Of a DNA stretch of 64,000 nucleotides, positions 36,119 through 55,882 are shown in pieces. Below the pieces are notes generated by a model. The model saw nothing but the letters and a program-made list of their open reading frames with translations, had not been told where the DNA came from and did not search any database. Origin of the DNA: Streptomyces sp. NBC_00654 (GTDB lineage: Bacteria > Actinomycetota > Actinomycetes > Streptomycetales > Streptomycetaceae); NCBI RefSeq assembly GCF_026341775.1, contig NZ_JAPEOB010000001.1:1984001-2048000 (forward strand), read 5' to 3'. A program made the translations under genes and the position numbers. How positions within the stretch are numbered: position 1 is the first letter of the stretch; each line of letters starts with the position of its first letter.

Positions 36119-36127
36119 CCGCCGGGG

Positions 36128-36153
36128 GACCCCCGGCCCCACCGGCCGGGGTC
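36128..36153. terminator. Bidirectional hairpin between EF-hand gene and esterase
   Basis: Imperfect stem GACCCCCGGCC/GGCCGGGGTC (one bulged C) between convergent genes. Confidence 0.5.
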
Positions 36154-36191
36154 CGTCGCCGCCCACGCACGCTCCCGAAGCCGCCGCGGGC

Positions 36192-37661: not shown

Positions 37662-37824
37662 CAGCCCTTTCGCGGTTCGACGGCCGAGGCGCCGTGCGGA
37701 TGATGGGTGGACCGGTGATCCGATACATACCCGTTCCGGCGCGGCGGCCGTCGGAACGCGGTGGCCGGGCCCGGGACGGGTGGCAGTGAGGACGGGGCGG
37801 CGGTCAGGACGGGGTGGCCGGGGC

Positions 37825-39318
37825 TCAGGACGCGGTGGCGGTCAGGGCCCGCTTGAGGATCTTGCCGGTCGGGCCGAGCGGCAGCCGCTCGGTGAACCGG
37901 ACGATCCGCGGGTACTTGTGCCGCCCCAGCCGCTCCTTGGACCAGGCGATCAGCTCGTCCCCGGTGACCGGTTCCGCGTCCGGCCGTACCACCACGACCG
38001 CGCAGATCTCCTCACCGCGCTCCTCGTCCGGCACCCCGATCACCGCGACCTCGCTGACCGCCGGATGCCGTATTAGGACCTCCTCGACCTCGCGCGGGTA
38101 GATGTTGAACCCGCCCCGGATGACCAGGTCCTTCTTGCGGTCCACGATGCGCAGGAAACCGTCCTCGTCCCGCACGCCCAGGTCCCCGGTGCGGAACCAG
38201 CCGTCCACGATCGCCGCCGCCGTCGCCTCCGGGTCGTCCAGATAGCCCGCGAACACACAGTGCCCGCGCACCACGACCTCACCGGTCTCCCCGTCCGCCA
38301 GCAGCCGCACCTCGTCGTCCACCGCGGCGTCGGCGATCCCGATCTCCACCCCCCACACCGGATGCCCGACCGTACCGGGCCGCCGGCCCAGCTCCGGCTG
38401 GTTGAACGTCGCGGCCGGGGAGGTCTCCGTCAGCCCGTACCCCTCCAGGACCTGCGTCGAGAACGCCGCCTCGAACCGCTCCAGCACCGCCACCGGGAGC
38501 GCCGCGCCGCCCGACACGGCCGCCCGCAGGGTCGGCCCGGCCGCCGCCTCCCCGCTCCGCGCCGCCGCCTCGACCAGGGCGTGGTACATCGTCGGCACGC
38601 CCATGAAGACGCTCACGTTCTCCGCCGCCAGCGCGGACAGCGCCCCGGCACCGGTGAAGCGCGGCATCAGCACGAGCGTCGCGCCGACCCGCATCGTCGC
38701 GTTCATCGCACAGGTCTGGCCGTAGCTGTGGAACAGCGGAAGGCAGCCCAGCACCACATCGTCGGGGCCGAGACGGAGCAGGTCCGTGGTGATCACGGAC
38801 GCGTTCATCACGATGTTGAGATGGGTCAGCAGGGCACCCTTGGGGCGGCCCGTCGTCCCGCTGGTGTACAGGATCACGGCGATGTCCTCGGCCCCGGCGG
38901 GCTCGGCGGCGGTGAGCGGCTCACCGTCCGGAGCCCCGTTCAGCCCCCGTACGCCCGCCGCCCGCGCGGCCTGTTCGGCCAGCGGCCACAGCGGTCCCGC
39001 ACTGATCAGCGCCACCGAACCGCTGTGCCGCAGCACGTACGCCACCTCGTCCGCGACGAGCAGCGCGTGCACCGGGACCACCGTCGCCCCGGCGGCCAGC
39101 GCCCCGTAGTACGCGTACAGGAAGTCCGCGGAGTTCGGCAGCAGCACCGCCACCCGGTCGCCCGGCCGTACCCCGGAGGCCCGCAGCGCCCCCGCGCAGC
39201 GCAGCGACCGCTCCCACAGCTCCGCGTAGGTCAGCCGCACCTCGCCGTCCACCACGGCGGTACGGGCGGGATACCGGCGGGCGGACTCGCCCAGGACAGA
39301 GGCGACGGTGAGAGACAT
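37825..39318 (-). CDS. Long-chain fatty acyl-CoA ligase (AMP-binding)
   Basis: A 497-residue acyl-activating enzyme that converts a carboxylic acid to its CoA thioester through an acyl-adenylate. Motifs: P-loop ILYTSGTTGRPKGALLTH, GYGLTETSPA, WFRTGDLGVRDEDGFLRIVD, YPREVEEVLIRHP, and catalytic Lys in PLGPTGKILKRAL near the C-terminus. ATG 39318 has GGAG 7 nt upstream; the frame extends another 172 codons without support. It is divergent from a PucR-type regulator that may control it. Substrate chain length cannot be read from the sequence. Confidence 0.93.
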   Translation of the reverse strand: MSLTVASVLGESARRYPARTAVVDGEVRLTYAELWERSLRCAGALRASGVRPGDRVAVLLPNSADFLYAYYGALAAGATVVPVHALLVADEVAYVLRHSGSVALISAGPLWPLAEQAARAAGVRGLNGAPDGEPLTAAEPAGAEDIAVILYTSGTTGRPKGALLTHLNIVMNASVITTDLLRLGPDDVVLGCLPLFHSYGQTCAMNATMRVGATLVLMPRFTGAGALSALAAENVSVFMGVPTMYHALVEAAARSGEAAAGPTLRAAVSGGAALPVAVLERFEAAFSTQVLEGYGLTETSPAATFNQPELGRRPGTVGHPVWGVEIGIADAAVDDEVRLLADGETGEVVVRGHCVFAGYLDDPEATAAAIVDGWFRTGDLGVRDEDGFLRIVDRKKDLVIRGGFNIYPREVEEVLIRHPAVSEVAVIGVPDEERGEEICAVVVVRPDAEPVTGDELIAWSKERLGRHKYPRIVRFTERLPLGPTGKILKRALTATAS

Positions 39319-39468
39319 GGCACGCTCCGGGAAACAAGGCGTCAACACGGCTGATGCCCCCCAGAATCGGTCGTCGCCGTATCTCCGCACAATGTGCAGG
39401 TGCCCACCATCCAGCCCGCTCACCTGGGCAGCGGCACCCGCAGTCGTGCACCCGTCGCGGCATTCGCC

Positions 39469-39474
39469 TAATCT
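39469..39474 (+). promoter_or_regulatory. Putative -10 (TAATCT) of a leaderless promoter
   Basis: TAATCT ends 7 nt before ATG 39482 of the PucR-type gene; no Shine-Dalgarno sequence is visible. Confidence 0.55.
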
Positions 39475-39481
39475 CGCTGTC

Positions 39482-40870
39482 ATGGCGTCCGCACCAGCCC
39501 CCCGGAGTTCCCGGAGTGTCCCGAGCCCGCAGGACCCGCGGAGTGCGCGGTCCGACGGCGGCGAGGACATCGCGCTGCGGCGCACCCTCGCCGCCGCCCT
39601 GCTGCCGGAGCTCGACGAGCTGACCCACCGGGTCGTCGACGACATCCACGCGCACAGCGGCACGTACGCCGCGCAGAACCTCGTCAGCCGCGAGGACCTG
39701 TGGCGCATCTGCCGCGACAACCTGGTCTGCGCGCTGGAGGACTTCGGCGGGCTGCCGCCCACCGGCGGCGACCTCGAACACGCGGCGCGCGAGACCGGAC
39801 GGCGCAGGGCCGAGCAGAACCTCCCGCTGGACACCGTGCTCCAGGCCTACCGGCGCGGCGGCCGGGTGATGTGGCAGGTCATGGCCGAATATCTGCGCGC
39901 GGGCACCGGCCGCACACCGGGAAACCCGCAGGAGCCGGAACCGGAACACGGGGGGCCGGGGCACGGGGGGCCGGGGCACCGGGAGGCCGCCAGGGTGGAC
40001 CGCCGTGATCTGGAGCTCGACATGGCGGGCGCCGTCTGGGAGACCATCGACCGGTACTCCCTGGTCATGGCGGAGTCGTACCGGCTGACCCAGCTGGAGA
40101 TGCAGGGCCGCCAGGACACCCGGCGCGTCGCCCTCTTCGAGGCGCTGCTCGACGGGCGCGGCTCCGACCCGGCGGTCGCCTCGGCGGCCGCCGCCGCACT
40201 CGGCGTACCGCTGCACGACCGGTATGTGATCGTGGTCGCGGCCCAGGACCCGGCCGCCCCGCCCAATCCCGCACCGGTGCTGGACGAGCACGGCCTCTGG
40301 TCGTTCTGGCGGCCGCGCTCGGGGCGGTACGCGGGCATCGTGCGGCTGGCCGCGGGGGAGTCGGGCATGCTGCTGGAGCTGCTGCGCGAGCGGACCGGGG
40401 CGACCGCCGGGGTGTCCCCGGAGTTCGACCGGCTGGACGGGGCCGGCCGCGCCCTGCGGCTGGCCGAGCAGACGCTGCGTACGCTGCCCGCCAAGAGCGG
40501 CGAGGCGGCGGCGTTCGACGACCGGCTGACCGAGGTCCTGCTCGCCGGGCGCCACGAGATCGCCGACCGGATCGTCGCCCGGTACCTCGGCCCGGTCCTG
40601 GACACCACGTCCGAACGCGAGGCCCTGCTCGGCACGCTGCGCATCTGGCTGGACAACGGCTGTTCGGCGGCGCGGGCCGCCGAGCTCCTCTACTGCCACC
40701 GCAACACGGTCCTCAACCGGATCGGCCGGGTCGCCGAACTCACCGGCGGATCCGCCGAGTCGGGTGAGGACCGGCTGGGGTGGGCACTGGCCCTGCGGGC
40801 CCTGCCGCTGTCGGGCACCGGCGGCGAACCGGTGCCCGACGACGGCTACTGGGAGGGAACTCCTCCCTGA
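39482..40870 (+). CDS. PucR/CdaR-type transcriptional regulator
   Basis: A 462-residue regulator. The N-terminal helical sensor region (about residues 15-190) contains a Pro/Gly/His-rich insertion (the GPGHGGPGH area). A GGDEF-like central region follows, and the C-terminus is the PucR helix-turn-helix: WLDNGCSAARAAELLYCHRN and TVLNRIGRVAELTG. Family members regulate purine, fatty-acid or sugar-acid use. The gene is divergent from the acyl-CoA ligase with 163 bp between starts, so it likely regulates it. ATG 39482 lacks a ribosome-binding site but has TAATCT 7 nt upstream (leaderless). Confidence 0.88.
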   Translation: MASAPAPRSSRSVPSPQDPRSARSDGGEDIALRRTLAAALLPELDELTHRVVDDIHAHSGTYAAQNLVSREDLWRICRDNLVCALEDFGGLPPTGGDLEHAARETGRRRAEQNLPLDTVLQAYRRGGRVMWQVMAEYLRAGTGRTPGNPQEPEPEHGGPGHGGPGHREAARVDRRDLELDMAGAVWETIDRYSLVMAESYRLTQLEMQGRQDTRRVALFEALLDGRGSDPAVASAAAAALGVPLHDRYVIVVAAQDPAAPPNPAPVLDEHGLWSFWRPRSGRYAGIVRLAAGESGMLLELLRERTGATAGVSPEFDRLDGAGRALRLAEQTLRTLPAKSGEAAAFDDRLTEVLLAGRHEIADRIVARYLGPVLDTTSEREALLGTLRIWLDNGCSAARAAELLYCHRNTVLNRIGRVAELTGGSAESGEDRLGWALALRALPLSGTGGEPVPDDGYWEGTPP

Positions 40871-40873
40871 GGC

Positions 40874-43195
40874 CTACTTGAGGTAGACGAGCCCGTCCGT
40901 GGTGAGGGCCGGCCGGCCCGTCGTGCCGACCACCACGATCTTGACGGTGTGCTTGCCGCTGGAGGCCCAGGACTTCGTCCAGATCGCCTCGCGGTACTTG
41001 GTGGTGGAGGACCTCAGGTCCACCGTGGCCGCCTTGACGCCGTCCACGTAGACGTACGCCTGACCGGAGGTCGAGGCCCGGGAGACCACCCAGGCGGCCG
41101 ACCGGCCGGTGAACGTCCAGGTCAGGCTGGAGTTCTTGGTGCTGCTCGCGTACGACCTGCCGCCGAGGTAGCTGGAGGAGGACTTCGTCGACCAGGTGCC
41201 GGACTTCTTCGCCGCGGACTCCTGGAGGATCACCGGAGTGCCGGTGACCGAGGCGGCCGCGGTGTTGCCCGCACGGTCGTACGCCGTCAGCCTCCAGGCG
41301 GTCGCCACGGCGGGCTTCGCCGTGTGCGAGGCGCTCGTGGTGGCCGGGCCGTAGGTCTTCGCGACGGGGGCGGTGAGCCTGACCTCCTTGAGGGAAGCCG
41401 CGTCGGTGGCCTTCCACTTCAGCGTCAGCGGGACGGACGTGGTGCTCACCGTGCCCTTGCGCAGCGACAGGTTCGGCTTGGTGGAGAAGACCGGTGCCGT
41501 ACGGTCGGCGACCACGGTCGCGACGGCCGAGAGGCTGGTGCTCCCCGACTGGTGGGTGGCGCGGACCTGGACCCGGTGGCTGCCGGCGGCGAGTGCGGCC
41601 CCGGCGGATACGGCGTTGCCCTGGGTGGTGGCCACGGCCTTGCCGTCGACCAGCAGTTCGTACTTCGTGATGAAGGCGGCGGGAGTGGCCGCCTTCCAGC
41701 CGACGGTGATGTTCGACTTGGTGTAGTACGTGCTGCCGGAGGCGCTCGCTCCGGTCACCGACGTGATGGCGAGACCGGTGACGGGCCCGGCGGCGAGAGC
41801 GCGGACGGCGGAGAGCTGTCCGTAGAGCTTCGTGCCGGGGCACTGGGTGTTGAAGCCGTCCCGGTGGCCGGAGATCTGCTTGAAGGTGTACGCGGACCCG
41901 GCGGTGAACTTGGTACCGGCGAAGTTGCCGCCCGCCGCACCGGCCGTCAGCGTCGTCGAGCCGGCCGGGTTTCCGCCGTACTGCCCGAGCTTCCAGGCGG
42001 CGATCCGGGCGACCGAGGCGGTCGCGGCGCTCGCGGCGTTCGTGTCGGTGTACATACCGATCACGGCGATACCGGCGGTGTCACGGTTGAAGCCGTAGGT
42101 GTGCGCGCCCTGGACCGGCCGGTCCACGCCGCCCTTGCGGCCTTCGAAGATCTTTCCGCACTTGTCGACCAGGAAGTTGTAGCCGAGGTCCTTCCAGCCG
42201 TTCGACTGCACATGGAAGGCGTGCAGACCGCGCACGATGGCGGCCGAATCGGCGCAGGAGTAGCTGTTGGTCTGTGCGGTGTGGTGGACGAAGACGGCCT
42301 TGACCTTGTCCAGGTAGTCCGGCTGCTCGCTGTTGAGCGATTCGACCGCGCCCCAGCCGGCCCGGGAGGTGATCGGCGGCTGCGGGACCGTGGACTGCGG
42401 GGCGGGCGGCAGCGCCGCCGTCGGCTCGGCGGTCACGGACGGCGCCGTGGAGGCCGGCCCGGACGGATCCGGGGACGTCGGGTCCGGTTCCGGTTCGGCA
42501 CTGGGGGTTTCGGGGGGCTCCGTCGTCGCGGAGGGATCCGGAGCGGCCGTGGTCTCCGCCGGATCGGGCGACGGCGGGGTGACGGGCGGCTCCGTCGGCT
42601 CCTCGGTGGCCGCGGGGTCACCGGTGGGCTCGGCCGGCACGAGGTCGGCGGCCACGTGGGCGGCCGGTCCGGCGGCGGCGTACGCGGCCGGGGCCGAGCC
42701 CTTCCCGGGATCCACGGTGTCCAGCCGCAGTCCCGCGGGGAGTCCCGCCGACACGCCGTTCCCGGCGCTGACGCGGACCTCGACGCCGTTGGACGGGCCG
42801 ACCCAGCGGGGTTCGGTGGTGCCCCGTACGCCGGGGCGGCCGGTCTCGGTGCGACCGTCGATCTCCGTGTCGAGCGGCAGCCAGCCGGTCCACCTGCCCG
42901 TGACGGCGGACCGGGTACGTGCCTCGACCTCACCCGTCACCCTGGCGGCCGGGTCGGTCCAGGTGACGCCGAGCAGGCTGAACGGTTCCGCGTCGGGCTG
43001 CCGCAGGGAGGCGGAGCCGCCGTCCGCGGACACCTTCAGCGCGGTCCTGCGCACATCGACCTGTGCGGGACCGGACTTGGCGTCGGAGCCCTCGCCCGAG
43101 GGGGATGTGCCGGTCACCCCCTGGAAGACCAGGACACCCGCCACGGCTGCCGTGGTGACGGCAGCCGTGGCCCATATTCTTCGTTTTGCTCTCAC
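40874..43195 (-). CDS. Secreted N-acetylmuramoyl-L-alanine amidase (PGRP/Amidase_2)
   Basis: A 773-residue exported protein. The signal/anchor is VRAKRRIWATAAVTTAAVAG. An N-terminal region to about residue 185 is followed by a Pro/Thr/Glu-rich linker (about 195-270). The zinc amidase domain spans about 275-455, with ligands His304 in VHHTAQ, His444 in SGHRDG and Cys452 in TQCPG. The C-terminal ~310 residues form Ig-like and beta-sandwich repeats. It should cleave the glycan-peptide bond in peptidoglycan. GTG 43195 follows GGGGAA. Its stop converges with that of the PucR gene, 3 nt apart, with no room for a dedicated terminator. Confidence 0.93.
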   Translation of the reverse strand: MRAKRRIWATAAVTTAAVAGVLVFQGVTGTSPSGEGSDAKSGPAQVDVRRTALKVSADGGSASLRQPDAEPFSLLGVTWTDPAARVTGEVEARTRSAVTGRWTGWLPLDTEIDGRTETGRPGVRGTTEPRWVGPSNGVEVRVSAGNGVSAGLPAGLRLDTVDPGKGSAPAAYAAAGPAAHVAADLVPAEPTGDPAATEEPTEPPVTPPSPDPAETTAAPDPSATTEPPETPSAEPEPDPTSPDPSGPASTAPSVTAEPTAALPPAPQSTVPQPPITSRAGWGAVESLNSEQPDYLDKVKAVFVHHTAQTNSYSCADSAAIVRGLHAFHVQSNGWKDLGYNFLVDKCGKIFEGRKGGVDRPVQGAHTYGFNRDTAGIAVIGMYTDTNAASAATASVARIAAWKLGQYGGNPAGSTTLTAGAAGGNFAGTKFTAGSAYTFKQISGHRDGFNTQCPGTKLYGQLSAVRALAAGPVTGLAITSVTGASASGSTYYTKSNITVGWKAATPAAFITKYELLVDGKAVATTQGNAVSAGAALAAGSHRVQVRATHQSGSTSLSAVATVVADRTAPVFSTKPNLSLRKGTVSTTSVPLTLKWKATDAASLKEVRLTAPVAKTYGPATTSASHTAKPAVATAWRLTAYDRAGNTAAASVTGTPVILQESAAKKSGTWSTKSSSSYLGGRSYASSTKNSSLTWTFTGRSAAWVVSRASTSGQAYVYVDGVKAATVDLRSSTTKYREAIWTKSWASSGKHTVKIVVVGTTGRPALTTDGLVYLK

Positions 43196-43390
43196 GTGAT
43201 TCCCCGGGGACGTTGGTGGAAGGAACTGCGTTCCGACAGGTGATGCGCTGTCTGGGGGAACAGCGGCTCGATCGGCTCTGCCGACGGTCACCTGCGGATG
43301 TATACGCTTCAACAGTCTTCCATGCGATCATCTCTGATCTGTCCCGCCCTGTCCCGACCTGTCAGGACTCGGTCCGGTCACGGTTGAGCG

Positions 43391-43427
43391 GGACCCGGGG
43401 CCCCCTCGGCGGGGATTCCCCGGGTCC
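43391..43427 (-). terminator. Terminator downstream of terpene synthase
   Basis: Ten-base-pair stem GGACCCGGGG/CCCCGGGTCC with a GC-rich inner loop, 42 nt beyond the terpene synthase stop on the minus strand. Confidence 0.6.
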
Positions 43428-43468
43428 TGCGAGCGACGTCCGGTTCCGTGCGGTGCGGAACGGCTCTC

Positions 43469-44852
<1,384 letters not shown>

Positions 44853-44858
44853 TATGGT
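44853..44858 (+). promoter_or_regulatory. Putative -10 (TATGGT) of leaderless leader-peptide promoter
   Basis: TATGGT ends 7 nt before ATG 44866 of the leader peptide; no Shine-Dalgarno sequence is present. Confidence 0.55.
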
Positions 44859-44865
44859 CCTCCGC

Positions 44866-44937
44866 ATGTCTACGTTGTTCGGGTGGTATCCGCGCTTTAC
44901 GCCGGCTCCGGGTGGAGCCGGTGGTCACATGCGCTGA
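44866..44937 (+). CDS. Aromatic leader peptide of a probable attenuator
   Basis: A 23-codon ORF upstream of the DAHP synthase gene. The peptide begins MSTLFGWYPRFTPAPGG and so contains Phe, adjacent Trp-Tyr and another Phe within seven residues. Its codons 7-8 (44884-44889) lie just before an 8-bp hairpin (44902-44921) and the ORF ends 28 nt before an intrinsic terminator. This is the arrangement of ribosome-mediated attenuation: slow translation at Trp/Tyr/Phe codons under aromatic amino-acid shortage would change RNA folding and let transcription continue into the first enzyme of the aromatic pathway. Confidence 0.7.
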   Translation: MSTLFGWYPRFTPAPGGAGGHMR

Positions 44938-44960
44938 TCACCGACCGAGCACCCGGAGCC
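44902..44960 (+). promoter_or_regulatory. Alternative RNA pairings of the DAHP synthase leader
   Basis: Two mutually exclusive structures share 44904-44914: a local hairpin CCGGCTCC/GGAGCCGG (44902-44921) and a long-range 11-bp perfect pairing of GGCTCCGGGTG with CACCCGGAGCC (44950-44960). The ribosome position on the leader ORF could choose between them. I did not find a clear antiterminator that overlaps the terminator stem itself. Confidence 0.5.
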
Positions 44961-44965
44961 AGCAG

Positions 44966-44991
44966 GGCAGAGACGTTCGTCTCTGCCTTTT
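44966..44991 (+). terminator. Intrinsic terminator of the DAHP synthase attenuator
   Basis: Nine-base-pair stem GGCAGAGAC/GTCTCTGCC with GTTC loop followed directly by TTTT. A U-tract is rare among terminators in this window, which supports a real attenuator. It lies 86 nt before the DAHP synthase start codon. Confidence 0.75.
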
Positions 44992-45077
44992 CGTCGTTGA
45001 GGCGGCTGGTAGCGGGTGATGCGGACGTAGCACCGCGGGACCGGGACCCTGCCTCGGCACAGAGACAGGATCACCCC

Positions 45078-46202
45078 ATGACCACGCCCACGACGGGCCA
45101 CCCCCGCACCGACGCGCCGCGCACCAACGACCTGCGCGTCACCGGTTTCCAGCCCCTGATCGCCCCGTCCGCCCTGCTCGCGGACCTGCCGCTGGGTCCT
45201 GCCCGCGCCGCGCTGGTCCAGGACAGCCGACGCGCCGTCAGGGACGTCCTCGCCGGCGAGGACGACCGCCTGCTGGTGGTCGTCGGCCCGTGCTCCGTCC
45301 ATGACCCGGCCGCCGCCCGGGAGTACGCGCAGCGCCTCGCCGCCGCCGTCGCCCCGCTCGCCGACGACCTCTGTGTGGTGATGCGGGTGTACTTCGAGAA
45401 GCCGCGCACGACGCTCGGGTGGAAGGGCCTCATCAACGACCCGCACCTGGACGGGACGCACGATGTCCAGCACGGGCTGCGGACCGCCCGCCAGGTGCTG
45501 CTCGATGTGCTCGACACCGGACTGCCGGTGGGCTGCGAGTTCCTGGAGCCGAACAGTCCGCAGTACATCTCGGACGCGGTGACCTGGGGCGCGATCGGCG
45601 CGCGCACTCCGGAGAGCCAGGTGCACCGCCAGCTGGCCTCGGGCCTGTCGATGCCCGTGGGCTTCAAGAACGCGACCGACGGCGTCGTGCAGCCCGCCGT
45701 CGACGGATGCCGGGCCGCCGCGGGCGAGCACGTCTTCTTCGGCCTCGACGAACAGGGCTGCGGCTCCATCGTCTCCACGAGCGGCAACCCCGACTGCCAC
45801 ATCATCCTGCGCGGCGGGCGCGGCGGCCCCAACTACGGCCCCGAGGACGTCCGCGACGCCCTGGCGGTGCTGGCCGGAGCGGGGATGCGCGAACGTCTGG
45901 TCATCGACGCCAGCCACGCCAACAGCGGCAAGGACCACCACCGGCAGGCGGCGGTCGTCGTCGAGATCGCGGAGCGGATCGCCGGGGGCGAGGAGGGGAT
46001 CGCCGGGCTGATGGTGGAGAGCTTCCTGCGGGAGGGGCGCCAGGAGCCGGGCCCCCTCGACACTCTGACGTACGGGCAGAGCGTGACCGACGCCTGCGTC
46101 GGATGGGAGCGGACCGAGGCGCTGCTGGACGCGTTGGCGGCAGCGGTGCGCGGGCGCCGCGCGGCGCGGCGGGAGTCCGCGGCGCAGCACCCGCCCCGCT
46201 GA
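45078..46202 (+). CDS. Class I 3-deoxy-7-phosphoheptulonate (DAHP) synthase
   Basis: A 374-residue AroF/AroG/AroH-type enzyme condensing phosphoenolpyruvate with erythrose-4-phosphate, the first step of the shikimate pathway. Motifs: LVVVGPCSVHDPAAAREYA, KPRTTLGWKGLINDPHLDGT, CEFLEPNSPQYISD, GFKNATDG, IILRGGRGGPNY, VIDASHANSGKDH and MVESFLREGRQ. ATG 45078 (AGGA 8 nt upstream) is chosen; the longer open frame starting at 44814 runs through the attenuator and is not real. Streptomyces housekeeping DAHP synthases are usually class II, so this enzyme may be an accessory isoenzyme for a specialised pathway. Confidence 0.95.
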   Translation: MTTPTTGHPRTDAPRTNDLRVTGFQPLIAPSALLADLPLGPARAALVQDSRRAVRDVLAGEDDRLLVVVGPCSVHDPAAAREYAQRLAAAVAPLADDLCVVMRVYFEKPRTTLGWKGLINDPHLDGTHDVQHGLRTARQVLLDVLDTGLPVGCEFLEPNSPQYISDAVTWGAIGARTPESQVHRQLASGLSMPVGFKNATDGVVQPAVDGCRAAAGEHVFFGLDEQGCGSIVSTSGNPDCHIILRGGRGGPNYGPEDVRDALAVLAGAGMRERLVIDASHANSGKDHHRQAAVVVEIAERIAGGEEGIAGLMVESFLREGRQEPGPLDTLTYGQSVTDACVGWERTEALLDALAAAVRGRRAARRESAAQHPPR

Positions 46203-46224
46203 TCACGCCGGGTCCGCCGGGCGG

Positions 46225-47439
46225 TCACAGGACAACGGGCAGTGCCCGGAACCCGTTCGAGATGAACGACTCCAGGGGCACCAGGTCCTGCGGCCCCCCG
46301 GCGAGCGCCAGACCGGGGAACCGCTCGAAGAGGGCCGGCAGGGCGATGCGTGCTTCGAGGCGGGCCAGCGGCGCCCCGACACACATGTGCACACCGTGAC
46401 CGAACGCCAGATGCCCCTGCGCGGGCCGGGTGATGTCGAACGAGCCGGCGTCCGCCCCGTGCTGTGCGGGGTCCCGGCCCGCCGCGGCGTAGGCGGGGAG
46501 GATCGCCTCGCCCCGGCGGATCGTGCGGCCGTCGGGGAGCGGGATGTCGTCCACGGCGAAGCGCAGCGGCAGACTGGCCACGCTCGGTGCCCAGCGCAGG
46601 GTCTCCTCGACGACATCGCTCCACGAAGCCTCGCCCGCGACGACGAGCCGGAGCTGCCCGGGGTGGGTGAGGAGCGCGTGCACCGCGTTGCCGATGAGGT
46701 TCACGGTGGTCTCGAACCCGGCGGAGATCACGAGCCACAGCGTGTGCATCAGCTCCTCCTCGCTCAGCCGGGCGCCGCCCTCGTCCCGGGCGGAGATGAG
46801 GACACTGGTCATGTCGTCGCCGGGGTCGGGGCGCTTGAGCGCGACCAGTTCGCGCAGTACCTCCTGGATCTCCTGCCAGGTGGACGCGGCCTCCTCCGGG
46901 CCGATGTCGGTGTCGAAGATGCGGGCGATGACCGCCGCGGTACGGGGCCGCAGCCCTTCGGGGATCCCGAAGAGCCGGCACATGACCTGCATCGGCAGCG
47001 GGTGCGCGTACCGGGCGCGCAGATCCACCGTCCGGCCGGGCGGCTCGGCGGCCATGGAGTCGAGCAGCCGCCCGGCCACCTTCTCGATGTCGCCGGCCAG
47101 CTCCTCGGTGCGGCGGGCGGTGAACGCCGGGGCGACGAGTTTGCGCAGCCGCCGGTGGTCCTGCCCGTACGCCGTGAACATGTTGACCACGCCGAGCCAG
47201 GTGTGCAGCCAGGAGTCGGGGGTGATCTCCCCCCGCTGCCAGGTGGGCCAGTGCGCGCGGGGGTCCTTGCTCACCCGGTCGTCGGTGAGGAGCTGCTTGA
47301 TCAGCGAGTGATGGCTGACGGCCCAGGCGGTGACCCCGCCGGGCAGGGTCACGGGAGTCGCGGGTCCGGCCGCGCGGAGCCGTGCGCCCTCGCCGGGAAT
47401 GTCGCTCCCGGCCGGGTCGATGGCGAAGGGCACGTCCAC
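46225..47439 (-). CDS. Cytochrome P450
   Basis: A 404-residue soluble bacterial P450. I-helix segment [15 protein letters not shown] (Glu-Thr in place of the usual Asp/Glu-Thr pair), EETLR of the K helix, and heme loop [17 protein letters not shown] with heme ligand Cys353. GTG 47439 follows AGGAG. It converges with the DAHP synthase (22 bp between stops). No ferredoxin or ferredoxin reductase is adjacent. It may hydroxylate the product of the terpene synthase or an aromatic compound; the sequence cannot decide. Confidence 0.94.
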
Positions 47440-47807
47440 GGTACGGCTCCTGTACTGGTCGTGGGGGGACCGGGGGTGGGTAACGGGCGAAACAGCGGGG
47501 GACGCCCGCCGGTATCAGGCTGTCCATGATCAGGCTACTGATCGGCCGCCGTCCGGTCCGCGACCGAGGGCGCATTGAGCACGATGGAAGACGTGCCCCC
47601 TGTACACCTTCGATGCGTGGGTGGACGCGGTCGCGGCGATCGTCGCCACACGGGCTCGAAGCACGGTCGAGGATGCCGCGACACGGACCGGCCGTCCGGG
47701 CGGGGACGTAGCCGCCCGTGCCGGTTCGAGAGGGCTTCGAGGAAGGCCCCGGCACGGCCCGGAGTCCTGCGCGGTGATGCCTCGCGCACGTGAGCCCAGA
47801 CCGTGAC
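47440..47807. other. Gene-free region between P450 and the SoxR-type operator
   Basis: About 370 bp. Several overlapping short frames on both strands are GC-driven artefacts without ribosome sites or recognisable protein pattern. It should contain the P450 promoter on the minus strand; nothing more can be assigned. Confidence 0.35.
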
Positions 47808-47838
47808 TTGACCTCAAGTTTGGTTGAGGTAGCCCAAT
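47808..47838 (+). promoter_or_regulatory. SoxR/MerR-type operator-promoter
   Basis: TTGACC (-35, 47808-47813) overlaps the dyad ACCTCAA-gtttgg-TTGAGGT (47811-47830). This closely matches the SoxR box core CCTCAAG...TTGAGG, and in MerR-family promoters the dyad fills a long 19-bp spacer; CCCAAT at 47833-47838 is at the expected -10 place. It lies 46 nt before the next start codon. Confidence 0.7.
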
Positions 47839-47883
47839 GGGGACCGGCTACCGGCCACGGCCGAACAACCGGAGGAGAGCGCT

Positions 47884-48600
47884 ATGACGACTGAACACAC
47901 CGACCGCGACCAGGTGGATTTCTGGTTCGACCCCCTGTGCGGCTGGACCTGGCTCGCGTACCAGTGGTTACGCCAGGTGGAAAGCGTGCGTGAGGTGTCG
48001 GTGCGCCTTCGTCCCACCGGGCTCGCGCTGATGCGCGCACGGACCGGGCAGGTGGATGTGAACCCGGAGTACCACGAGCTCGCGCAGGGCCCGGCACGGG
48101 TGATCGCGGCGGCCCACGCCCTGCGCGGCGACGAGATCCTGGCACCGCTCTACGACGCGGTCGGTTCGCGCCTGCACGCCCCGGGCGGCGTCCTGGAGGG
48201 CACCTTCGGGCGGGCGCGCGATCTGTCGCCCGAGGACCGCAGGCTGGTCCAGCTGGAGGTGCTGGGGAAGGCCGAAGGGGCGGTCGCCGCCGCACTCACC
48301 GAGGTGGGGCTGTCACCGGACCTGACGGAGCAGATGCGCTCCACGGAGTGGGACGGGGCCCTGAGCGACTCCCACGCCTCGATTCCCCTCGACGGCCGGC
48401 GGATCGAGCTCATCGGTGTCCCGGTGATCTCCGTCAAAGGCGGCAACGGCTGGTTCGGCCCCGTGCTCAGCGCGATCCCCGCGGGGGAACGGGCGGGGCG
48501 GCTGTGGGACGGTTTCCGGCTGGTCGCGGCCGAGGAGCTGGTCGGCGAGATGAAGGTGGTCGGGGACCGTACGGTGCCCCGGCCGCGGCTGGTGTTCTGA
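47884..48600 (+). CDS. DsbA-family / mycothiol-dependent nitroreductase-like protein
   Basis: A 238-residue protein of the DsbA/FrnE-like thioredoxin fold, resembling actinobacterial Rv2466c-type mycothiol-dependent nitroreductases (MRARTGQVDVNPEYH and GVPVISVKGGNGWFGPVLS segments). The active-site region FDPLCGWTWLAYQW has the first Cys (Cys19) but Thr at the second CxxC position, so it would act as a single-cysteine enzyme. ATG 47884 follows GGAGGAG. The SoxR/MerR-type operator upstream and the MFS exporter downstream (36 nt) suggest a response to redox-active or electrophilic compounds. Confidence 0.8.
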   Translation: MTTEHTDRDQVDFWFDPLCGWTWLAYQWLRQVESVREVSVRLRPTGLALMRARTGQVDVNPEYHELAQGPARVIAAAHALRGDEILAPLYDAVGSRLHAPGGVLEGTFGRARDLSPEDRRLVQLEVLGKAEGAVAAALTEVGLSPDLTEQMRSTEWDGALSDSHASIPLDGRRIELIGVPVISVKGGNGWFGPVLSAIPAGERAGRLWDGFRLVAAEELVGEMKVVGDRTVPRPRLVF

Positions 48601-48636
48601 CCGTCATGGCCCGATCCGAGGAGGGATGTACCAGCC

Positions 48637-50307
48637 ATGGCTGAGGCAGTCGCCGCACATGAGGATCCGAAGTACCCCGAGCTCAGCCGGCGGACCATCA
48701 CCCTGGTGGTGACGGGGCTCCTGCTCGCGGTCTTCATGTCCGCACTCGACGGCATGATCATGGCCACCGCGATGCGGACGGTCGCCGACAACCTGCACGG
48801 GCAGACCCTGCAGGCCTGGGCCACCACCGGCTATCTGATCACCGCGACCATTTCCCTGCCGCTCTACGGAAAACTCTCCGACATCTACGGCCGCAAGCGG
48901 CTGTACATGATCGCGATCGTGCTCTTCCTGCTGGGTTCGCTGCTCTGCGCGATGGCCCAGTCGATGTACGAACTCGCCCTGTACCGCGGCATCCAGGGGC
49001 TGGGCGGCGGTGGACTGGGCTCGGTCGCCCTGGCCGTGCTGGCCGACATGCTGCCGCCGGAGCAGCGGGTGCGCTACCAGGCGAACTTCGGCGCGGTCTT
49101 CGGGATCGCGAGCGTCCTGGGCCCGGCCGTGGGCGGGCTGTTCGCGGGCATGGACAGCTTCCTGGGCGTCGCGGGATGGCGCTGGATCTTCCTCATCAAT
49201 CTGCCGATCGGTCTGATCACGCTCGTCGTCGTCGGGAAGCTGTTCACGTTCAGGAACGTCCGGATCCCCCAGCGCGTCGACTACCGGGGGGCCACCGCGC
49301 TGGTCGCCGGGCTGGTGCCGCTGCTGCTGGTCGCCGAACAGGGCAAGCAGTGGGGCTGGACGTCGCCGCTCTCGCTGGGGCTGTTCGTCCTGGGCGCGGC
49401 CGGCCTGGCGTGGTTCCTGCTCGTGGAGCGCAGGATGGGCGACGAGGCGCTGATGCCGCCCCGGCTCTTCCGCAACAGCGCGTTCACCCAGGTGAACGTG
49501 GTGAACTTCATCGGCGGTATCGGCGCCTTCACCTCCATGACGTTCCTGCCGCTCTACCTCCAGATCGTGCAGGGCCTGTCGCCCACCACCGCGGGCCTGC
49601 TGCTGCTTCCGCAGTCGCTGGCGACCACCGTGGGAGCCAAGTTCGCCGGCCCCGTCGTCGCCAGGACCGAGCGCTACAAGTTCATGCTGGCCGGCGGACT
49701 GGCCATGCTCGGCGCCACCTACCTGGTCCTGAGCACGGTCGGCGTGGACACCTCGCTGTGGGTCATGGGCGCGCTGGCCGTCGCGATGGGCCTGGGGCTC
49801 GGCATCTTCATGCAGACGGTCCTCACGGCCCTGCAGAACAGTGTTCCCCCGCAGGACATGGGTGTGGCCAGCGGGCTGTACAGCTTCTCGCGGCAACTCG
49901 GCGCGATCTCCGGTACGGCCGTCTTCCTCTCGGTCATGTTCGGTATCGCCGCCGGCCGGATCATCGACTCCTTCGCCTCGGTGCGGAACACGCCCGCACT
50001 GCAGGCCGCGATGAACGACCCGGCGGTGCTGTCCAGCGCGGCGGACCAGAAGGTGCTCACCGGGCTGCTCGGCGGCACCGAGGGCATCGACCTCGACAAC
50101 ACGGCGGTGCTCGACACCCTCGACCCGCGCGTCGCGCGCCCGATCCTGGAGGGCATGGGGAGCAGCATCAACACGGTCTTCCTCGTCCTGGGCGGCCTCG
50201 GCCTCCTCGCGGCACTCGTATCGCTCACGATCAGGGAGAAGGCCGGATCCAAGGCGCCGGCCGAACAGAGCGACGGGGCCGGGGAACGGCTCGCCGCCAC
50301 GGAGTGA
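48637..50307 (+). CDS. MFS drug exporter, DHA2 family (14 helices)
   Basis: A 556-residue proton-coupled efflux pump of the EmrB/QacA group. TM1 motif D1 is seen in FMSALDGMIMATAMRTVAD, motif A in GKLSDIYGRKR, and motif C in GIASVLGPAVGGLFAG; the length and hydrophobic pattern fit 14 helices. GAGGAGGG precedes the ATG. It is co-transcribed with the nitroreductase-like gene under the SoxR-type operator, which suggests export of a redox-cycling or nitroaromatic compound, self-made or foreign. A strong terminator follows. Confidence 0.93.
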   Translation: MAEAVAAHEDPKYPELSRRTITLVVTGLLLAVFMSALDGMIMATAMRTVADNLHGQTLQAWATTGYLITATISLPLYGKLSDIYGRKRLYMIAIVLFLLGSLLCAMAQSMYELALYRGIQGLGGGGLGSVALAVLADMLPPEQRVRYQANFGAVFGIASVLGPAVGGLFAGMDSFLGVAGWRWIFLINLPIGLITLVVVGKLFTFRNVRIPQRVDYRGATALVAGLVPLLLVAEQGKQWGWTSPLSLGLFVLGAAGLAWFLLVERRMGDEALMPPRLFRNSAFTQVNVVNFIGGIGAFTSMTFLPLYLQIVQGLSPTTAGLLLLPQSLATTVGAKFAGPVVARTERYKFMLAGGLAMLGATYLVLSTVGVDTSLWVMGALAVAMGLGLGIFMQTVLTALQNSVPPQDMGVASGLYSFSRQLGAISGTAVFLSVMFGIAAGRIIDSFASVRNTPALQAAMNDPAVLSSAADQKVLTGLLGGTEGIDLDNTAVLDTLDPRVARPILEGMGSSINTVFLVLGGLGLLAALVSLTIREKAGSKAPAEQSDGAGERLAATE

Positions 50308-50339
50308 GCCCCGCGGCCGTGGCCGGGATCACCCAACGG

Positions 50340-50372
50340 GAGCCCCCACCGGACCGGGTCCGGTGGGGGCTC
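50340..50372. terminator. Perfect 15-bp stem between MFS gene and sdaA
   Basis: GAGCCCCCACCGGAC and exact complement with a 3-nt loop, then ATTTCC. It serves the two convergent units. Confidence 0.88.
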
Positions 50373-50378
50373 ATTTCC

Positions 50379-51764
50379 CTAGCACTCGATGATGTTCACC
50401 GCGAGCCCGCCCCGCGCCGTCTCCTTGTACTTGACGCTCATGTCGGCGCCCGTCTCCTTCATGGTCTTGATGACCTTGTCGAGGGAGACCTTGTGGCTGC
50501 CGTCGCCGCGCAGCGCCATCTTCGCCGCGGTGACCGCCTTGACGGCCGCCATGCCGTTGCGCTCGATGCACGGGATCTGGACCAGGCCGCCGACCGGGTC
50601 GCAGGTCAGGCCGAGGTTGTGTTCCATGCCGATCTCGGCGGCGTTCTCGACCTGCTCGGGGGAGCCGCCGAGGACCTCGGCCAGCGCGCCCGCGGCCATG
50701 GAGCAGGCGGAGCCGACCTCGCCCTGGCAGCCGACCTCGGCGCCGGAGATGGAGGCGTTCTCCTTGAAGAGCATGCCGATGGCTCCGGCGGCGAGCAGGA
50801 AGCGGACGACGCTGTCCTCCTTCTCGGCCTCGGTGCAGCCGCCGGCCGCGAAGTTCATGTAGTAGTGCAGGACGGCGGGGATGATGCCCGCGGCGCCGTT
50901 GGTGGGGGCCGTGACGACGCGGCCGCCCGCCGCGTTCTCCTCGTTGACCGCCATCGCGTAGAGGGTGATCCACTCCATCGCGTGGGCCTGCGGGTCGCCC
51001 TCGGCGCGCAGCTGGCGGGCGGAGTTCGCGGCGCGGCGGCGGACCTTCAGGCCGCCGGGGAGGATGCCCTCGCGGGACATGCCGCGCGAGACACAGGCCT
51101 GCATGACGCGCCAGATGTCCAGCAGACCCGAGCGGATCTCGTCCTCGGTGCGCCAGGCCTTCTCGTTCTCCAGCATCAGCGAGGAGATGGACAGGCCGGT
51201 TTCGCCGGAGAGCCGCAGCAGCTCGTCGCCGGTGCGGAAGGGGTGCTTGAGGGCGGTGTCGTCCGGGACGATCGGGTTCTCGCCCTGGACCGCGTCCTCG
51301 TCCACGACGAAGCCGCCGCCGACGGAGTAGTAGGTCTTCTCCAGGAGCGGGGCGCCCTCGTGGTCGTACGCGAAGATCGTCATGCCGTTGGCGTGGTACG
51401 GCAGGGCCTTGCGGCGGTGCAGGACCAGCTGCTCGTCGGCGTCGAAGGGGATCTCGTGCGCCCCGAGCAGGTTGATCCGGCCGGTGGCGCGGATCTCCTC
51501 GACGCGGGCGTCGGCGGACTCCACATCGACGGTGCGGGGCGACTCGCCCTCCAGGCCGAGCAGGACCGCCTTGGGCGTGCCGTGCCCGTGGCCGGTCGCG
51601 CCGAGCGAACCGTACAGCTCGGCCCGTATCGAGGCGGTGTGGGCCAGCAGGCCCTCGTTCTTCAGGCGGCGCGCGAACATCCGGGCGGCGCGCATCGGTC
51701 CCACCGTGTGGGAGCTGGACGGGCCGATACCGACCGAGAACAGGTCGAAGACCGAGATGGCCAC
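50379..51764 (-). CDS. sdaA: L-serine ammonia-lyase SdaA
   Basis: A 461-residue single-chain iron-sulfur serine deaminase producing pyruvate and ammonia. The N-terminal domain begins [20 protein letters not shown]. Cluster cysteines lie in [15 protein letters not shown] and [15 protein letters not shown]. The chain ends in IIEC, and such a C-terminal Cys is known in this family to act as a fourth cluster ligand that serine displaces. GTG 51764 follows AGGAG. It is last in the riboswitch-led operon gcvT-gcvH-glyA-sdaA and would consume serine made from glycine. Confidence 0.96.
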
Positions 51765-51917
51765 GGGATGACTCCTAAGGGTGGGAAGACGCCGTTGTCT
51801 GCCGGGTGGTGCGGTACGGGCCGGGTCGGCCCGAAGAGCGAGGACAAGGGTGGGGGCACCGCGCTCACTGTCCAGTGTGCGTGGTGCCCCGCCCGAAACG
51901 TGCGAACTGCTTCCGGA

Positions 51918-53177
51918 CTACTTCAGACCGGGGTACAGCGGGAACTTCTCGGCAAGTGCCGTGACACGGGCCTTCAGGCCGGCGGCGTCGTACGACGGCT
52001 TCAGCGCGGCGGCGATGATCTCCGCCACCTCGGTGAAGTCCTCGTTCTGGAAACCGCGGGTCGCCAGGGCCGGGGTGCCGATCCGCAGACCCGAGGTGAC
52101 CATCGGCGGCCGCGGGTCGTTCGGGACCGCGTTCCGGTTGACCGTGATGCCGACCTCGTGGAGGCGGTCCTCGGCCTGCTGGCCGTCCAGCTCGGAGTCG
52201 CGCAGGTCGACGAGGACCAGGTGCACGTCCGTGCCGCCGGACAGGACGGAGACGCCGGCCTCGGTGACGTCCGGCTGCACCAGACGCTCGGCGAGGATGC
52301 GGGCGCCGTCCAGGGTGCGCTGCTGGCGCTCCTTGAACTCCTCGGTCGCCGCGACCTTGAACGAGACCGCCTTGGCCGCGATCACGTGCTCCAGCGGGCC
52401 ACCCTGCTGACCGGGGAAGACCGCCGAGTTGATCTTCTTGGCGAGCTCCTGCGTCGACAGGATGACGCCACCGCGCGGACCGCCGAGGGTCTTGTGCGTG
52501 GTGGTCGTGACGACATGGGCGTGCGGCACCGGGTTGGGGTGCAGACCCGCGGCCACCAGGCCCGCGAAGTGCGCCATGTCGACCATCAGGTACGCGCCGA
52601 CCTCGTCCGCGATGCGGCGGAAGGCGGCGAAGTCGAGCTGGCGCGGGTAGGCGGACCAGCCCGCGACGATCAGCTTCGGCTTGGTCTCCTTGGCCAGGCG
52701 CTCGACCTCGGCCATGTCCACGGTGCCGGTGTCGTCGACGTGGTACGGGACCACGTTGTAGAGCTTGCCGGAGAAGTTGATCTTCATGCCGTGGGTCAGG
52801 TGACCGCCGTGGGCCAGGTTCAGGCCCATGATCGTGTCGCCCGGCTTCAGCAGCGCGAACATCGCGGCGGCGTTCGCCTGCGCACCGGAGTGCGGCTGGA
52901 CGTTCGCGGCCTCGGCGCCGAACAGGGCCTTGATCCGGTCGATCGCGATCTGCTCGACCACGTCGACGTGCTCACAGCCGCCGTAGTAGCGGCGGCCGGG
53001 GTAGCCCTCGGCGTACTTGTTGGTGAGGACGGAGCCCTGGGCCTCCATGACGGCGACCGGAGCGAAGTTCTCCGAGGCGATCATTTCGAGGGTGGACTGC
53101 TGACGGTGGAGCTCGGCGTCGACGGCTGCGGCGACGTCCGGGTCCAGCTCGTGGAGGGAGGAGTTGAGAAGCGACAT
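51918..53177 (-). CDS. glyA: Serine hydroxymethyltransferase GlyA
   Basis: A 419-residue PLP enzyme interconverting glycine and serine with methylene-tetrahydrofolate. Motifs: [48 protein letters not shown], and PLP-lysine Lys229 in [14 protein letters not shown]. It is only 18 bp downstream of gcvH on the minus strand, so co-transcribed. In this operon it joins the one-carbon unit released by the glycine cleavage system to a second glycine, giving serine for SdaA. Confidence 0.97.
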
Positions 53178-53195
53178 CAGGGGATCCCTAGGGTC

Positions 53196-53573
53196 TCAGT
53201 TGCCGGAGAACGCGGTGTATTCGTCGGCGGAGAGCAGGTCGTCCGGCTCCTCCGCCACCCGTACCTTGAACAGCCAGCCGCCCTCGAACGGAGCGGAGTT
53301 CACCAGCGACGGGTCGTCCACGACGTCCTGGTTCGCCGCGACGACCTCACCCGTGATGGGGGAGTACAGGTCGCTGACCGACTTGGTCGACTCCAGCTCG
53401 CCGCAGGTCTCGCCCGCGGTCACCGTGTCGCCGACGTCGGGGAGCTGCGCGTAGACGACGTCACCGAGCGCGTTGGCCGCGTACTCGGTGATACCGATCG
53501 TGGCGACACCGTCCTCGACGGCCGACAGCCACTCGTGCTCCTTGCTGTACCGCAGCTGCTGGGGGTTGCTCAT
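53196..53573 (-). CDS. gcvH: Glycine cleavage system H protein GcvH
   Basis: A 125-residue lipoyl carrier that shuttles the aminomethyl group between the P, T and L proteins. The lipoylation site is Lys64 in [30 protein letters not shown] and [19 protein letters not shown] are standard. ATG 53573 has AGGAGA about 10 nt upstream. It is the second gene of the operon after gcvT. The P protein gene (gcvP) is not in the window. Confidence 0.97.
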
Positions 53574-53673
53574 GACCTGAATTCTCCTGTACGCGGGGGA
53601 GTGCTGATGAACGGTGGTCTTACGGTGTGAGACGCGATTACGTCACTTCCGGGGCGGTGCGATGCCCGGAATG

Positions 53674-54789: not shown

Positions 54790-54823
54790 GGATTCGGCTC
54801 CAGGGCATGACGACAGAGGACGA

Positions 54824-55040
54824 TCCCTCCCCATCTGTCATCGGAACCTGAGAGGTTCGCCGAAAGGCCCTGAAGGGGGTCAGCCCTCGCCGGGTTCGGC
54901 TTGCACCTTGGGTGGAGCCGCCGGGCGGCTCGCTTTTCAGATCTGCCTCATCCACGCGGTACGGGGCCTGAGAGATTCAAGGGAGGAACTTGCTCCTTCG
55001 GCGCCCGGTACACACAGTGACCGGAACTCTCCCGCGCGGA
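54824..55040 (-). ncRNA. Tandem glycine riboswitch
   Basis: On the minus strand two aptamer-like units precede gcvT. The first has GCGGGAGAGTTCC, the conserved GCGCCGAAGGAGCAA and AATCTCTCAGG. The second has GGGCCTTTCGGCGAACC and CCTCTCAGGTTCCG, followed by GACAGATGGGGAGG. The repeated CTCTCAGG and GCCGAAGG-type cores are diagnostic of glycine aptamers. Binding glycine should turn on expression of the gcvT-gcvH-glyA-sdaA operon. The exact ends are estimated. Confidence 0.9.
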
Positions 55041-55165: not shown

Positions 55166-55203
55166 TCTTGGGCAGGTGTGGGTGACCCGACAGGGGGAGG
55201 GCG

Positions 55204-55878: not shown

Positions 55879-55882
55879 GGCT

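What the first reader, a model, noticed from the sequence alone, without database searches (positions are those of the whole stretch)
44853..45078. Leaderless aromatic attenuator in front of a class I DAHP synthase
A 23-codon ORF containing Phe, Trp-Tyr and Phe within seven residues is followed by alternative RNA pairings (local hairpin versus an 11-bp long-range helix) and one of the few hairpin-plus-U-tract terminators in the window, all before the first gene of the aromatic pathway. The leader ORF itself looks leaderless (TATGGT, 7 nt, ATG), so ribosomes would engage the RNA as soon as it appears. Attenuators of trp genes are established in actinomycetes. One on a DAHP synthase that may sense Trp, Tyr and Phe together, with a leaderless ORF, is worth testing. 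I could not identify a classical antiterminator overlapping the terminator stem.
Basis: partly seen in the sequence, partly recalled or inferred. Interest (0 to 1): 0.72.

Follow-up and report, generated by a model that had tools for sequence, protein, structure and literature searches.

The report
Aromatic attenuator before DAHP synthase
A short RNA stretch in front of a Streptomyces gene for the first step of aromatic amino acid synthesis looks like a translation-sensing switch that actinobacteria have kept widely and also placed before a second gene of the same pathway.

Summary
At 44853-45078 a leaderless 23-codon ORF (F5, W7-Y8, F11), a long-range helix and a hairpin with U-tract precede a class I DAHP synthase. 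All six of 392 genus genomes with a closely related synthase carry it, as do 52 of 76 readable class I genes in a class-wide draw and 30 of 30 in one family. Both helices covary. The aromatic codons are mostly TAT and TTT, which the downstream genes avoid. The element also precedes chorismate mutase genes, there without Trp codons (0 of 18 leaders against 72 of 85). A related attenuator, aroR-aroF, is known in Corynebacterium glutamicum: a new variant of a known kind. Instead the long-range helix ends 0-1 nt from the stem in 56 of 70 leaders, against 8% in shuffles, and a conserved strand beyond the terminator competes for the same arm. I infer that starvation-stalled ribosomes let this abutting helix form and hinder termination. 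Regulation is untested.

The parts
44853..44858 (+). -10 promoter element TATGGT, 7 nt before the leader start codon (leaderless transcript expected)
   Evidence: TANNNT lies 6-8 nt before the start codon in 81 of 81 leaders (63 at 7 nt) against 1 of 1539 background positions; 30 of 30 in a scan that starts from the -10
44866..44937 (+). leader ORF, 23 codons, aromatic codons TTC 44878, TGG 44884, TAT 44887, TTT 44896
   Evidence: conserved aromatic cluster; codon choice TAT 105/TAC 5 and TTT 81/TTC 17 in 85 leaders
44901..44914 (+). S1: switch strand inside the ORF (GCCGGCTCCGGGTG); pairs with S2 or S3
44914..44919 (+). S2: local partner of S1 (GGAGCC), hairpin inside the ORF; shares its first base with the S1:S3 end
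   Evidence: 89.0% of cells paired, 1 of 6 pairs with change on both sides
44950..44963 (+). S3: long-range partner of S1 (CACCCGGAGCCAGC), ends directly at the terminator stem; also pairs with S6
   Evidence: 91.4% of cells paired, 4 of 13 pairs with change on both sides
44964..44989 (+). S4:S5: intrinsic-terminator-like hairpin, followed by U's to 44991
   Evidence: 98.1% of cells paired, 9 of 10 pairs with change on both sides; not listed by the consensus scan
45005..45018 (+). S6: S1-like strand beyond the terminator (GCTGGTAGCGGGTG) that can take S3 away from S1
   Evidence: S3 against the downstream 60 nt beats shuffles at p<0.05 in 35 of 70 leaders, controls 2-3 of 70; its best site lies 8-19 nt past the hairpin in 64 of 70
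44996..45058 (+). S6:S7 hairpin (44996-45005 with 45049-45058), predicted when S1:S3 holds S3
   Evidence: prediction: P 0.93 with a W7 stall, 0.03 without; fold of the region against shuffles is weak overall, mean z -0.66 over 84
45078..46202 (+). class I DAHP synthase (3-deoxy-7-phosphoheptulonate synthase), 374 aa, the controlled gene
   Evidence: PF00793 E 4.7e-86; TIGR00034 aroFGH 488 bits over cut-off 173

Best explanation
It is a ribosome-mediated transcription attenuator for a class I DAHP synthase, started from a leaderless mRNA. Shown here from sequence: the conserved leaderless ORF with aromatic codons, the conserved S1:S3 helix and terminator hairpin, the S3:S6 alternative, and the spacings. 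Inferred: when aminoacyl-tRNA is plentiful the ribosome runs to the stop codon, sits between S1 and S3 and keeps them apart, so the hairpin with its U-tract ends transcription. When Trp or Tyr (or Phe at codon 5) is short, the ribosome stalls 14-23 nt before S1 and leaves it bare; S1 pairs with S3 in a 13-pair helix that abuts the terminator stem. Because this helix reaches the foot of the stem, the stem cannot close fully in the RNA polymerase exit channel, and transcription reads on. 
For: Presence: 6 of 392 genus genomes by covariance model, the same 6 whose class I synthase is at least 79% identical; 14 other genus genomes with 49-58% identical synthases lack it. Class draw: 78 of 394 genomes have a class I synthase; 52 carry the leader, 24 do not (22 of them one family), 1 masked, 1 not fetched. 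Family draw: 30 of 30. Leaderless start. Covariation: (0 of 500 shuffles reach the observed covariation score; slid versions 0.06-0.11 against 0.30). Codon choice. Re-use before chorismate mutase with Trp lost. Spacing: first aromatic codon to S1 median 17 nt, 34 of 70 exactly 17; S3 to stem 0 or 1 nt in 56 of 70 against 8.4% of 1400 shuffles. Fold model: on a stall at the first aromatic codon P(S1:S3) rises by more than 0.2 in 36 of 70 and falls in 1; in the window, with RNA made up to the end of the U-tract, from 0.13 to 1.0. In one relative (L278) the S1:S3 helix (-26 kcal/mol) includes the 5' arm of a hairpin that runs into six T's, so there the two exclude each other.
Against: In the type-A form P(terminator stem) stays high with and without a stalled ribosome (lowest 0.74, nearly always about 1) and changes by more than 0.1 in 0 of 70, so there is no base-pairing reason for antitermination; abutment is an inference. 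In 34 of 70 leaders P(S1:S3) does not rise by more than 0.2, in most because it is already high without a ribosome, in four because it stays low. In the window model with a W7 stall S3:S6 wins for a while once S6 is out (P(S1:S3) 0.43 at 155 nt, 0.01 at 160) before S1:S3 returns at 190 nt. In L278 the model gives the terminator at 0.95-0.97 and S1:S3 at 0.0 at the U-tract in every ribosome state tried, so its overlap is a matter of layout, not a predicted switch. The plain fold model lets S1:S3 form around a ribosome at the stop codon; that it cannot is my steric argument. F11 lies only 5 nt before S1, where a stall would cover it. One of five covariation measures (further pair types) is reached by 24 of 500 shuffles. 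The U-tract is short in many leaders, and 14 'type B' leaders mostly lack one. No transcript data exist for this window.
Confidence: 0.75

Rival explanations
1. The working switch is S1:S3 against S3:S6, downstream of or on top of the U-tract: S3:S6 encloses the terminator hairpin and gives a second-chance stop (hairpin-driven or Rho-dependent) or shuts the messenger, and the S4:S5 hairpin is not what is regulated.
For: S3:S6 is conserved beyond chance (35 of 70 against 2-3 of 70 in controls and 0 of 64 for the next 60 nt; 7 of 18 chorismate mutase leaders against 0 of 18 with S3 reversed). In the window fold model S3:S6 dominates without a ribosome, and S1:S3 plus S6:S7 dominates in the full leader with a W/Y stall. 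This is full, classical competition for one strand.
Against: S6 is transcribed only after the U-tract, so it cannot affect termination there. In the window no U-tract follows S6. None of 13 type-B rows shows it. Half of the type-A leaders miss p<0.05.
Confidence: 0.27
2. S1:S3 promotes termination: it stacks end to end on the terminator stem and strengthens it, and the ribosome stalled on the last aromatic codon (covering S1) is what allows read-through.
For: The 0-1 nt spacing fits coaxial stacking. The last aromatic codon lies 5 or 8 nt before S1 in 56 of 70 leaders, so a stall there would cover S1. In C. glutamicum Phe limitation, not Tyr, raised aroF transcription (review PMC11802643, passages).
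Against: S1:S3 would then form at W/Y stalls too, making Trp and Tyr codons work the wrong way; in L278 S1:S3 and the terminator share an arm and cannot coexist.
Confidence: 0.17
3. The conserved unit is mainly a coding or promoter relic: a leaderless small protein with a fixed terminator behind it, not a sensor.
For: No response has been measured here, and 13 of 85 DAHP synthase leaders have no Trp codon.
Against: Compensatory changes in two helices, loss of Trp codons where the controlled gene serves only the Phe/Tyr branch, avoided synonyms as aromatic codons, and placement before aromatic-pathway genes in every hit looked at.
Confidence: 0.07

Closest known systems
aroR-aroF attenuator of Corynebacterium glutamicum (Neshat et al. 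2014; seen only through passages of PMC4046766, PMC3890552 and the review PMC11802643)
   Same: Aromatic leader peptide (Phe-Tyr-Phe) upstream of a DAHP synthase gene, reported as transcription attenuation that rises under Phe limitation. An unnamed 2.4-Mb genome from the family draw (L270) has leader MRMWRFYFSKAPEAETS with the same S1, S3 and abutting terminator.
   Different: The window's leader has W-Y and two separated Phe codons and no FYF run. The C. glutamicum sequence itself was not in hand, and the original paper was not looked up.
trpL-type attenuators of actinomycete trp genes (S. venezuelae, C. glutamicum; Seliverstov et al. 2005; S. lividans TrpL1)
   Same: Leader peptide with control codons, alternative helices, terminator; TrpL1 and several other S. 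lividans leaders are leaderless (PMC8079986, passages).
   Different: In the trp case antiterminator and terminator hairpins use shared complementary triples (PMC1262725). Here they abut without sharing. Codons and gene differ.
pheL-pheA and other proteobacterial aromatic attenuators
   Same: Leader codons for the end product control an aromatic-pathway gene (review passage).
   Different: E. coli controls chorismate mutase-prephenate dehydratase this way; here one RNA family serves DAHP synthase and, in other genomes, chorismate mutase.
Leaderless polycysteine ORF attenuators of mycobacteria (Canestrari et al. 2020; seen only as a citation)
   Same: Leaderless short ORF whose codons match the pathway.
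   Different: Not readable here; PMC1262725 reports no conserved terminator hairpin before the mycobacterial cys operons.

Membership tests
Ribosome-mediated amino-acid attenuator, classical (trpL type) | Short leader ORF with codons for the pathway's product | tested here: met
Ribosome-mediated amino-acid attenuator, classical (trpL type) | Terminator hairpin with U-tract between leader and gene | tested here: met
   hairpin conserved and covarying; U-tract modest in the window and not listed by the scan, long before most of the 18 chorismate mutase genes
Ribosome-mediated amino-acid attenuator, classical (trpL type) | Antiterminator that shares an arm with the terminator stem | tested here: not met
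   P(stem) changes by more than 0.1 in 0 of 70 leaders; a shared arm is seen in the relative L278, where the fold model nevertheless predicts no switch at the U-tract
Ribosome-mediated amino-acid attenuator, classical (trpL type) | Control codons placed so that a stalled ribosome frees the switch strand | tested here: met
   first aromatic codon to S1 median 17 nt, range 8-23 over 70 leaders; the footprint of about 13 nt is recalled
Ribosome-mediated amino-acid attenuator, classical (trpL type) | Read-through rises when the amino acid is short | not testable with these tools
   needs transcripts
aroR-aroF type DAHP synthase attenuator | Aromatic leader before a class I DAHP synthase in an actinobacterium | tested here: met
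aroR-aroF type DAHP synthase attenuator | Descent from the same RNA element as C. glutamicum aroR | tested here: inconclusive
   C. glutamicum sequence not fetched; L270 (unnamed, FYF leader, same helices) is suggestive
Any Rfam family | Match at the gathering score | tested here: not met
   only a glycine riboswitch elsewhere in the window; two chance-level hits far below gathering score

The most novel reading that the evidence does not exclude
An actinobacteria-wide attenuator family that antiterminates without competing for the terminator stem: a ribosome-released long-range helix is held flush against the foot of the stem and keeps it from closing inside RNA polymerase. A third strand, S6, acts as a decoy for the same arm, and the family changes its amino-acid specificity by swapping codons when it moves between DAHP synthase (W/Y/F) and chorismate mutase (Y/F).
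Probability: 0.3. Interest if true: 0.78.

Novelty: new variant of a known kind. Interest (0 to 1): 0.62.

Why it matters
A 2005 survey found no conserved RNA regulation before phenylalanine or tyrosine operons in actinobacteria (PMC1262725), and in the papers searched here only the C. glutamicum aroR case turned up since. This element is spread over many families of the class, can be recognised by a model, and sits on the entry step to aromatic amino acids and to many aromatic natural products. Its move to chorismate mutase with loss of Trp codons is a natural test that the codons matter. The abutting helix gives a concrete test of whether antitermination needs pairing competition at all.

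Tried and rejected
Considered and set aside. An Rfam family: none at gathering score, only chance-level hits at E 0.85 and 2. A classical overlapping antiterminator in the window: not found by fold model with ribosome masks. RBS sequestration by the terminator's 3' arm (GTCTCTG with CAGAGAC before the start codon): visible in the window and its nearest relative, not tested across relatives. An S6:S7 hairpin as a conserved unit: weak (mean z -0.66 over 84). Column-based pair counts for S3:S6: the alignment (A2) does not hold S6 in register between lineages, so only the per-sequence shuffle test is used. A sigma-70 promoter scan found nothing in 36000-55900, so the -10 rests on conservation. L278 as proof of polarity: its layout fits, its predicted folding at the U-tract does not switch.

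Limits of the counts. The first 85 leaders were picked by me for aromatic clusters (four by eye) and, where several in-frame starts existed, the start was chosen with the -10 in view; the family scan starts from the -10 and is the fairer test (its listing was sorted by aromatic count; only one locus showed a second candidate). The 85 contain a few near-duplicate strains from two collections. Of the 80 loci, 28 carry the leader by the scan plus reading; the other 52 are mostly outside the actinobacteria, but nine actinobacterial loci (Nocardiopsis-like, bifidobacterial, one Streptosporangiales, one Gryllotalpicola) also lack it. 14 type-B leaders and L021 were dropped before the 70-leader counts; the 38 rows of A1 leave out near-duplicates and several odd type-A rows. 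The Fisher p ignores relatedness. Model R1 found 45 of the 52 leader-bearing synthase genomes of the class draw; the seven missed are six type-B rows and G729. Neshat 2014 was seen only as cited by others; Canestrari 2020 was not held. That no DAHP synthase attenuator outside C. glutamicum is in print rests on paper searches only.

Full report
What is there. The window has TATGGT at 44853-44858, then 7 nt, then ATG at 44866 opening a 23-codon ORF that ends at 44937: MSTLFGWYPRFTPAPGGAGGHMR. Its aromatic codons are TTC (codon 5), TGG-TAT (7-8) and TTT (11). Inside the ORF, S1 (GCCGGCTCCGGGTG, 44901-44914) can fold back on S2 (GGAGCC) or pair with S3 (CACCCGGAGCCAGC, 44950-44963). The next base begins the hairpin AGGGCAGAGAC-GTTC-GTCTCTGCCTT, whose last bases are part of a run of four T's. 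The DAHP synthase starts at 45078; it is class I (PF00793; aroFGH). The genome also holds a full-length class II match and a second, fragmented one, so this gene is an additional synthase.

Is it real. A DNA search of 392 genus genomes gives 14 matches, six of them substantial. Exactly those six hold a class I synthase at least 79% identical, and a covariance-model search of 392 genus genomes finds the element in the same six. Fourteen other genus genomes have 49-58% identical synthases without it. In a class-wide draw 78 of 394 genomes have a class I synthase at E <= 1e-80; 52 have the leader, 24 do not (22 in one family, f17), one is masked and one was not fetched. In a draw of 41 genomes of one family, 30 have the synthase, and a scan from the -10 element outward finds in 30 of 30 a leaderless ORF with at least two aromatic residues in its first 16 (29 of 30 at least three); 23 of these genomes were new.

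The start. In 81 of 81 leaders TANNNT lies 6-8 nt before the start codon, 63 at exactly 7, against 1 hit in 1539 background positions. TAnnnT is the -10 consensus reported for S. lividans, where 17% of transcripts are leaderless, among them several leader peptides (PMC8079986, passages).

The helices. On 38 aligned leaders S1:S3 is paired in 91.4% of cells with 4 of 13 pairs changed on both sides; the hairpin in 98.1% with 9 of 10. No shuffle of 500 reaches the observed covariation score, and slid structures score 0.06-0.11 against 0.30; one of the five measures, further pair types, is reached by 24 of 500. S1:S2 is paired in 89.0% with one of six pairs changed on both sides.

The codons. In 85 DAHP synthase leaders the aromatic codons are TAT 105, TAC 5, TTT 81, TTC 17, TGG 85. 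The matching stretches of the synthase genes behind those of the leaders that lie in loci L015-L094 use TAT 1, TAC 150, TTT 0, TTC 179. The leaders thus use the synonyms these genes avoid. I do not know why: one tRNA is expected to read both codons (recalled), so slower decoding or RNA constraint are the options.

A second controlled gene. Model R1 found 63 of 388 class genomes. 45 of them are leader-bearing synthase genomes; the other 18 (17 of f17, and G623) are not among the synthase hits. In those 18 the element precedes a protein with a chorismate mutase domain: alone in three, behind a partial DAHP_synth_1-like barrel in the rest, by reading the sequences; five (three fusions, two lone domains) were checked against Pfam and all match CM_2. 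None of these 18 leaders has a Trp codon, while 72 of 85 DAHP synthase leaders do (the Fisher p of 4e-12 ignores relatedness). Chorismate mutase serves only the Phe/Tyr branch, so the codons follow the pathway. Most of their U-tracts are long (for example CTGCCTTTTTTGTTTCTT), which supports the hairpin being a terminator.

How it may work. In 70 type-A leaders the first aromatic codon begins a median 17 nt before S1 (34 exactly 17), the last one 5 or 8 nt before (56 of 70), and S3 starts 9-29 nt after the first base of the stop codon. With a ribosome footprint of about 13 nt past the A site (recalled), a stall at the first codons leaves S1 just free, a stall at the last covers part of it, and a ribosome at the stop codon lies between S1 and S3. 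Fold calculations with the window's RNA made up to the end of the U-tract give P(S1:S3) 0.13 without a ribosome and 1.0 with a W7 or Y8 stall; for the whole leader 0.03 and 0.95. In between, when S6 has just been made, S3:S6 wins even with the stall (P(S1:S3) 0.01 at 160 nt), and S1:S3 returns when S7 can hold S6. Over 70 leaders P(S1:S3) rises by more than 0.2 in 36, falls in 1, and P(terminator stem) changes by more than 0.1 in none.

The abutment. What replaces it is spacing. S3 ends 0 or 1 nt from the stem in 56 of 70 leaders, against 8.4% when the stretch between stop codon and stem is shuffled. A helix that reaches the foot of a terminator stem should get in its way inside the RNA exit channel; that is inference. 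One relative, L278, has the classical layout: its S1:S3 helix (-26 kcal/mol) includes the 5' arm of a hairpin that runs into six T's. But the fold model there gives the terminator at 0.95-0.97 and S1:S3 at 0.0 at the U-tract whatever the ribosome does, so this is support by layout only. Stacking could instead strengthen the stem, which is listed as a rival.

The third strand. S6 resembles S1 and has its best site 8-19 nt past the hairpin in 64 of 70 leaders. S3 pairs with the 60 nt beyond the hairpin better than shuffles at p<0.05 in 35 of 70 leaders; control strands do so in 2-3 of 70, and S3 against the next 60 nt in 0 of 64. In the chorismate mutase leaders it is 7 of 18 against 0 of 18 for reversed S3; in type B 0 of 13. 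Its role is open: a decoy for S3, or a second-chance stop.

Known work. C. glutamicum aroF has a Phe-Tyr-Phe leader (PMC4046766, passages), named aroR, with transcription raised under Phe but not Tyr limitation (review PMC11802643, passages). The 2005 comparative survey reports no conserved structures upstream of phenylalanine and tyrosine operons in actinobacteria (PMC1262725, parts 1 and 2 of 3 read). Eight leader peptides listed in S. lividans include none on a DAHP synthase (PMC8079986, passages). Rfam has no matching family. In the papers searched (listings, with passages of nine papers) I saw no report of this element outside Corynebacterium, or before chorismate mutase in actinobacteria.

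Verdict. The finding stands as a real, widely conserved aromatic attenuator by sequence, a new variant of a known kind, with an unusual terminator arrangement. Whether and how it regulates is untested.

Noticed in passing
54947-55044 (-): Glycine riboswitch aptamer, 64.7 bits over a gathering score of 32.
   Followed up: no
43469-44476 (-) and 46225-47439 (-): The synthase gene is flanked by a terpene cyclase-like gene and a cytochrome P450-like gene (best NCBIfam hits far below their cut-offs), so it may serve or sit beside a secondary-metabolite locus.
   Followed up: partly
44814-46202 (+): The synthase reading frame stays open upstream to a GTG at 44814 (462 aa), so a gene caller could extend the gene over the leader and hide it.
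   Followed up: no
L223-L240: The same RNA element before chorismate mutase genes, most fused to a partial DAHP-synthase-like barrel, in several loci just upstream of a gene that reads like DNA polymerase III alpha (by eye); leaders have Phe/Tyr but no Trp.
   Followed up: yes
L278 (genome G786): A variant leader (MHNAYFWFARPARVGTVGGWMR) in which the long-range helix includes the terminator arm and the hairpin runs into six T's; the fold model predicts no switch at the U-tract.
   Followed up: partly
L029-L046 and other type-B leaders: Nocardia, Rhodococcus and Amycolatopsis leaders (YFWF) fold into a different, multi-branched arrangement, mostly without a U-tract; their mode of control may differ.
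   Followed up: partly
window and 85 leaders: Aromatic codons of the leaders are mostly TAT and TTT, synonyms that the downstream genes avoid; no explanation found.
   Followed up: partly
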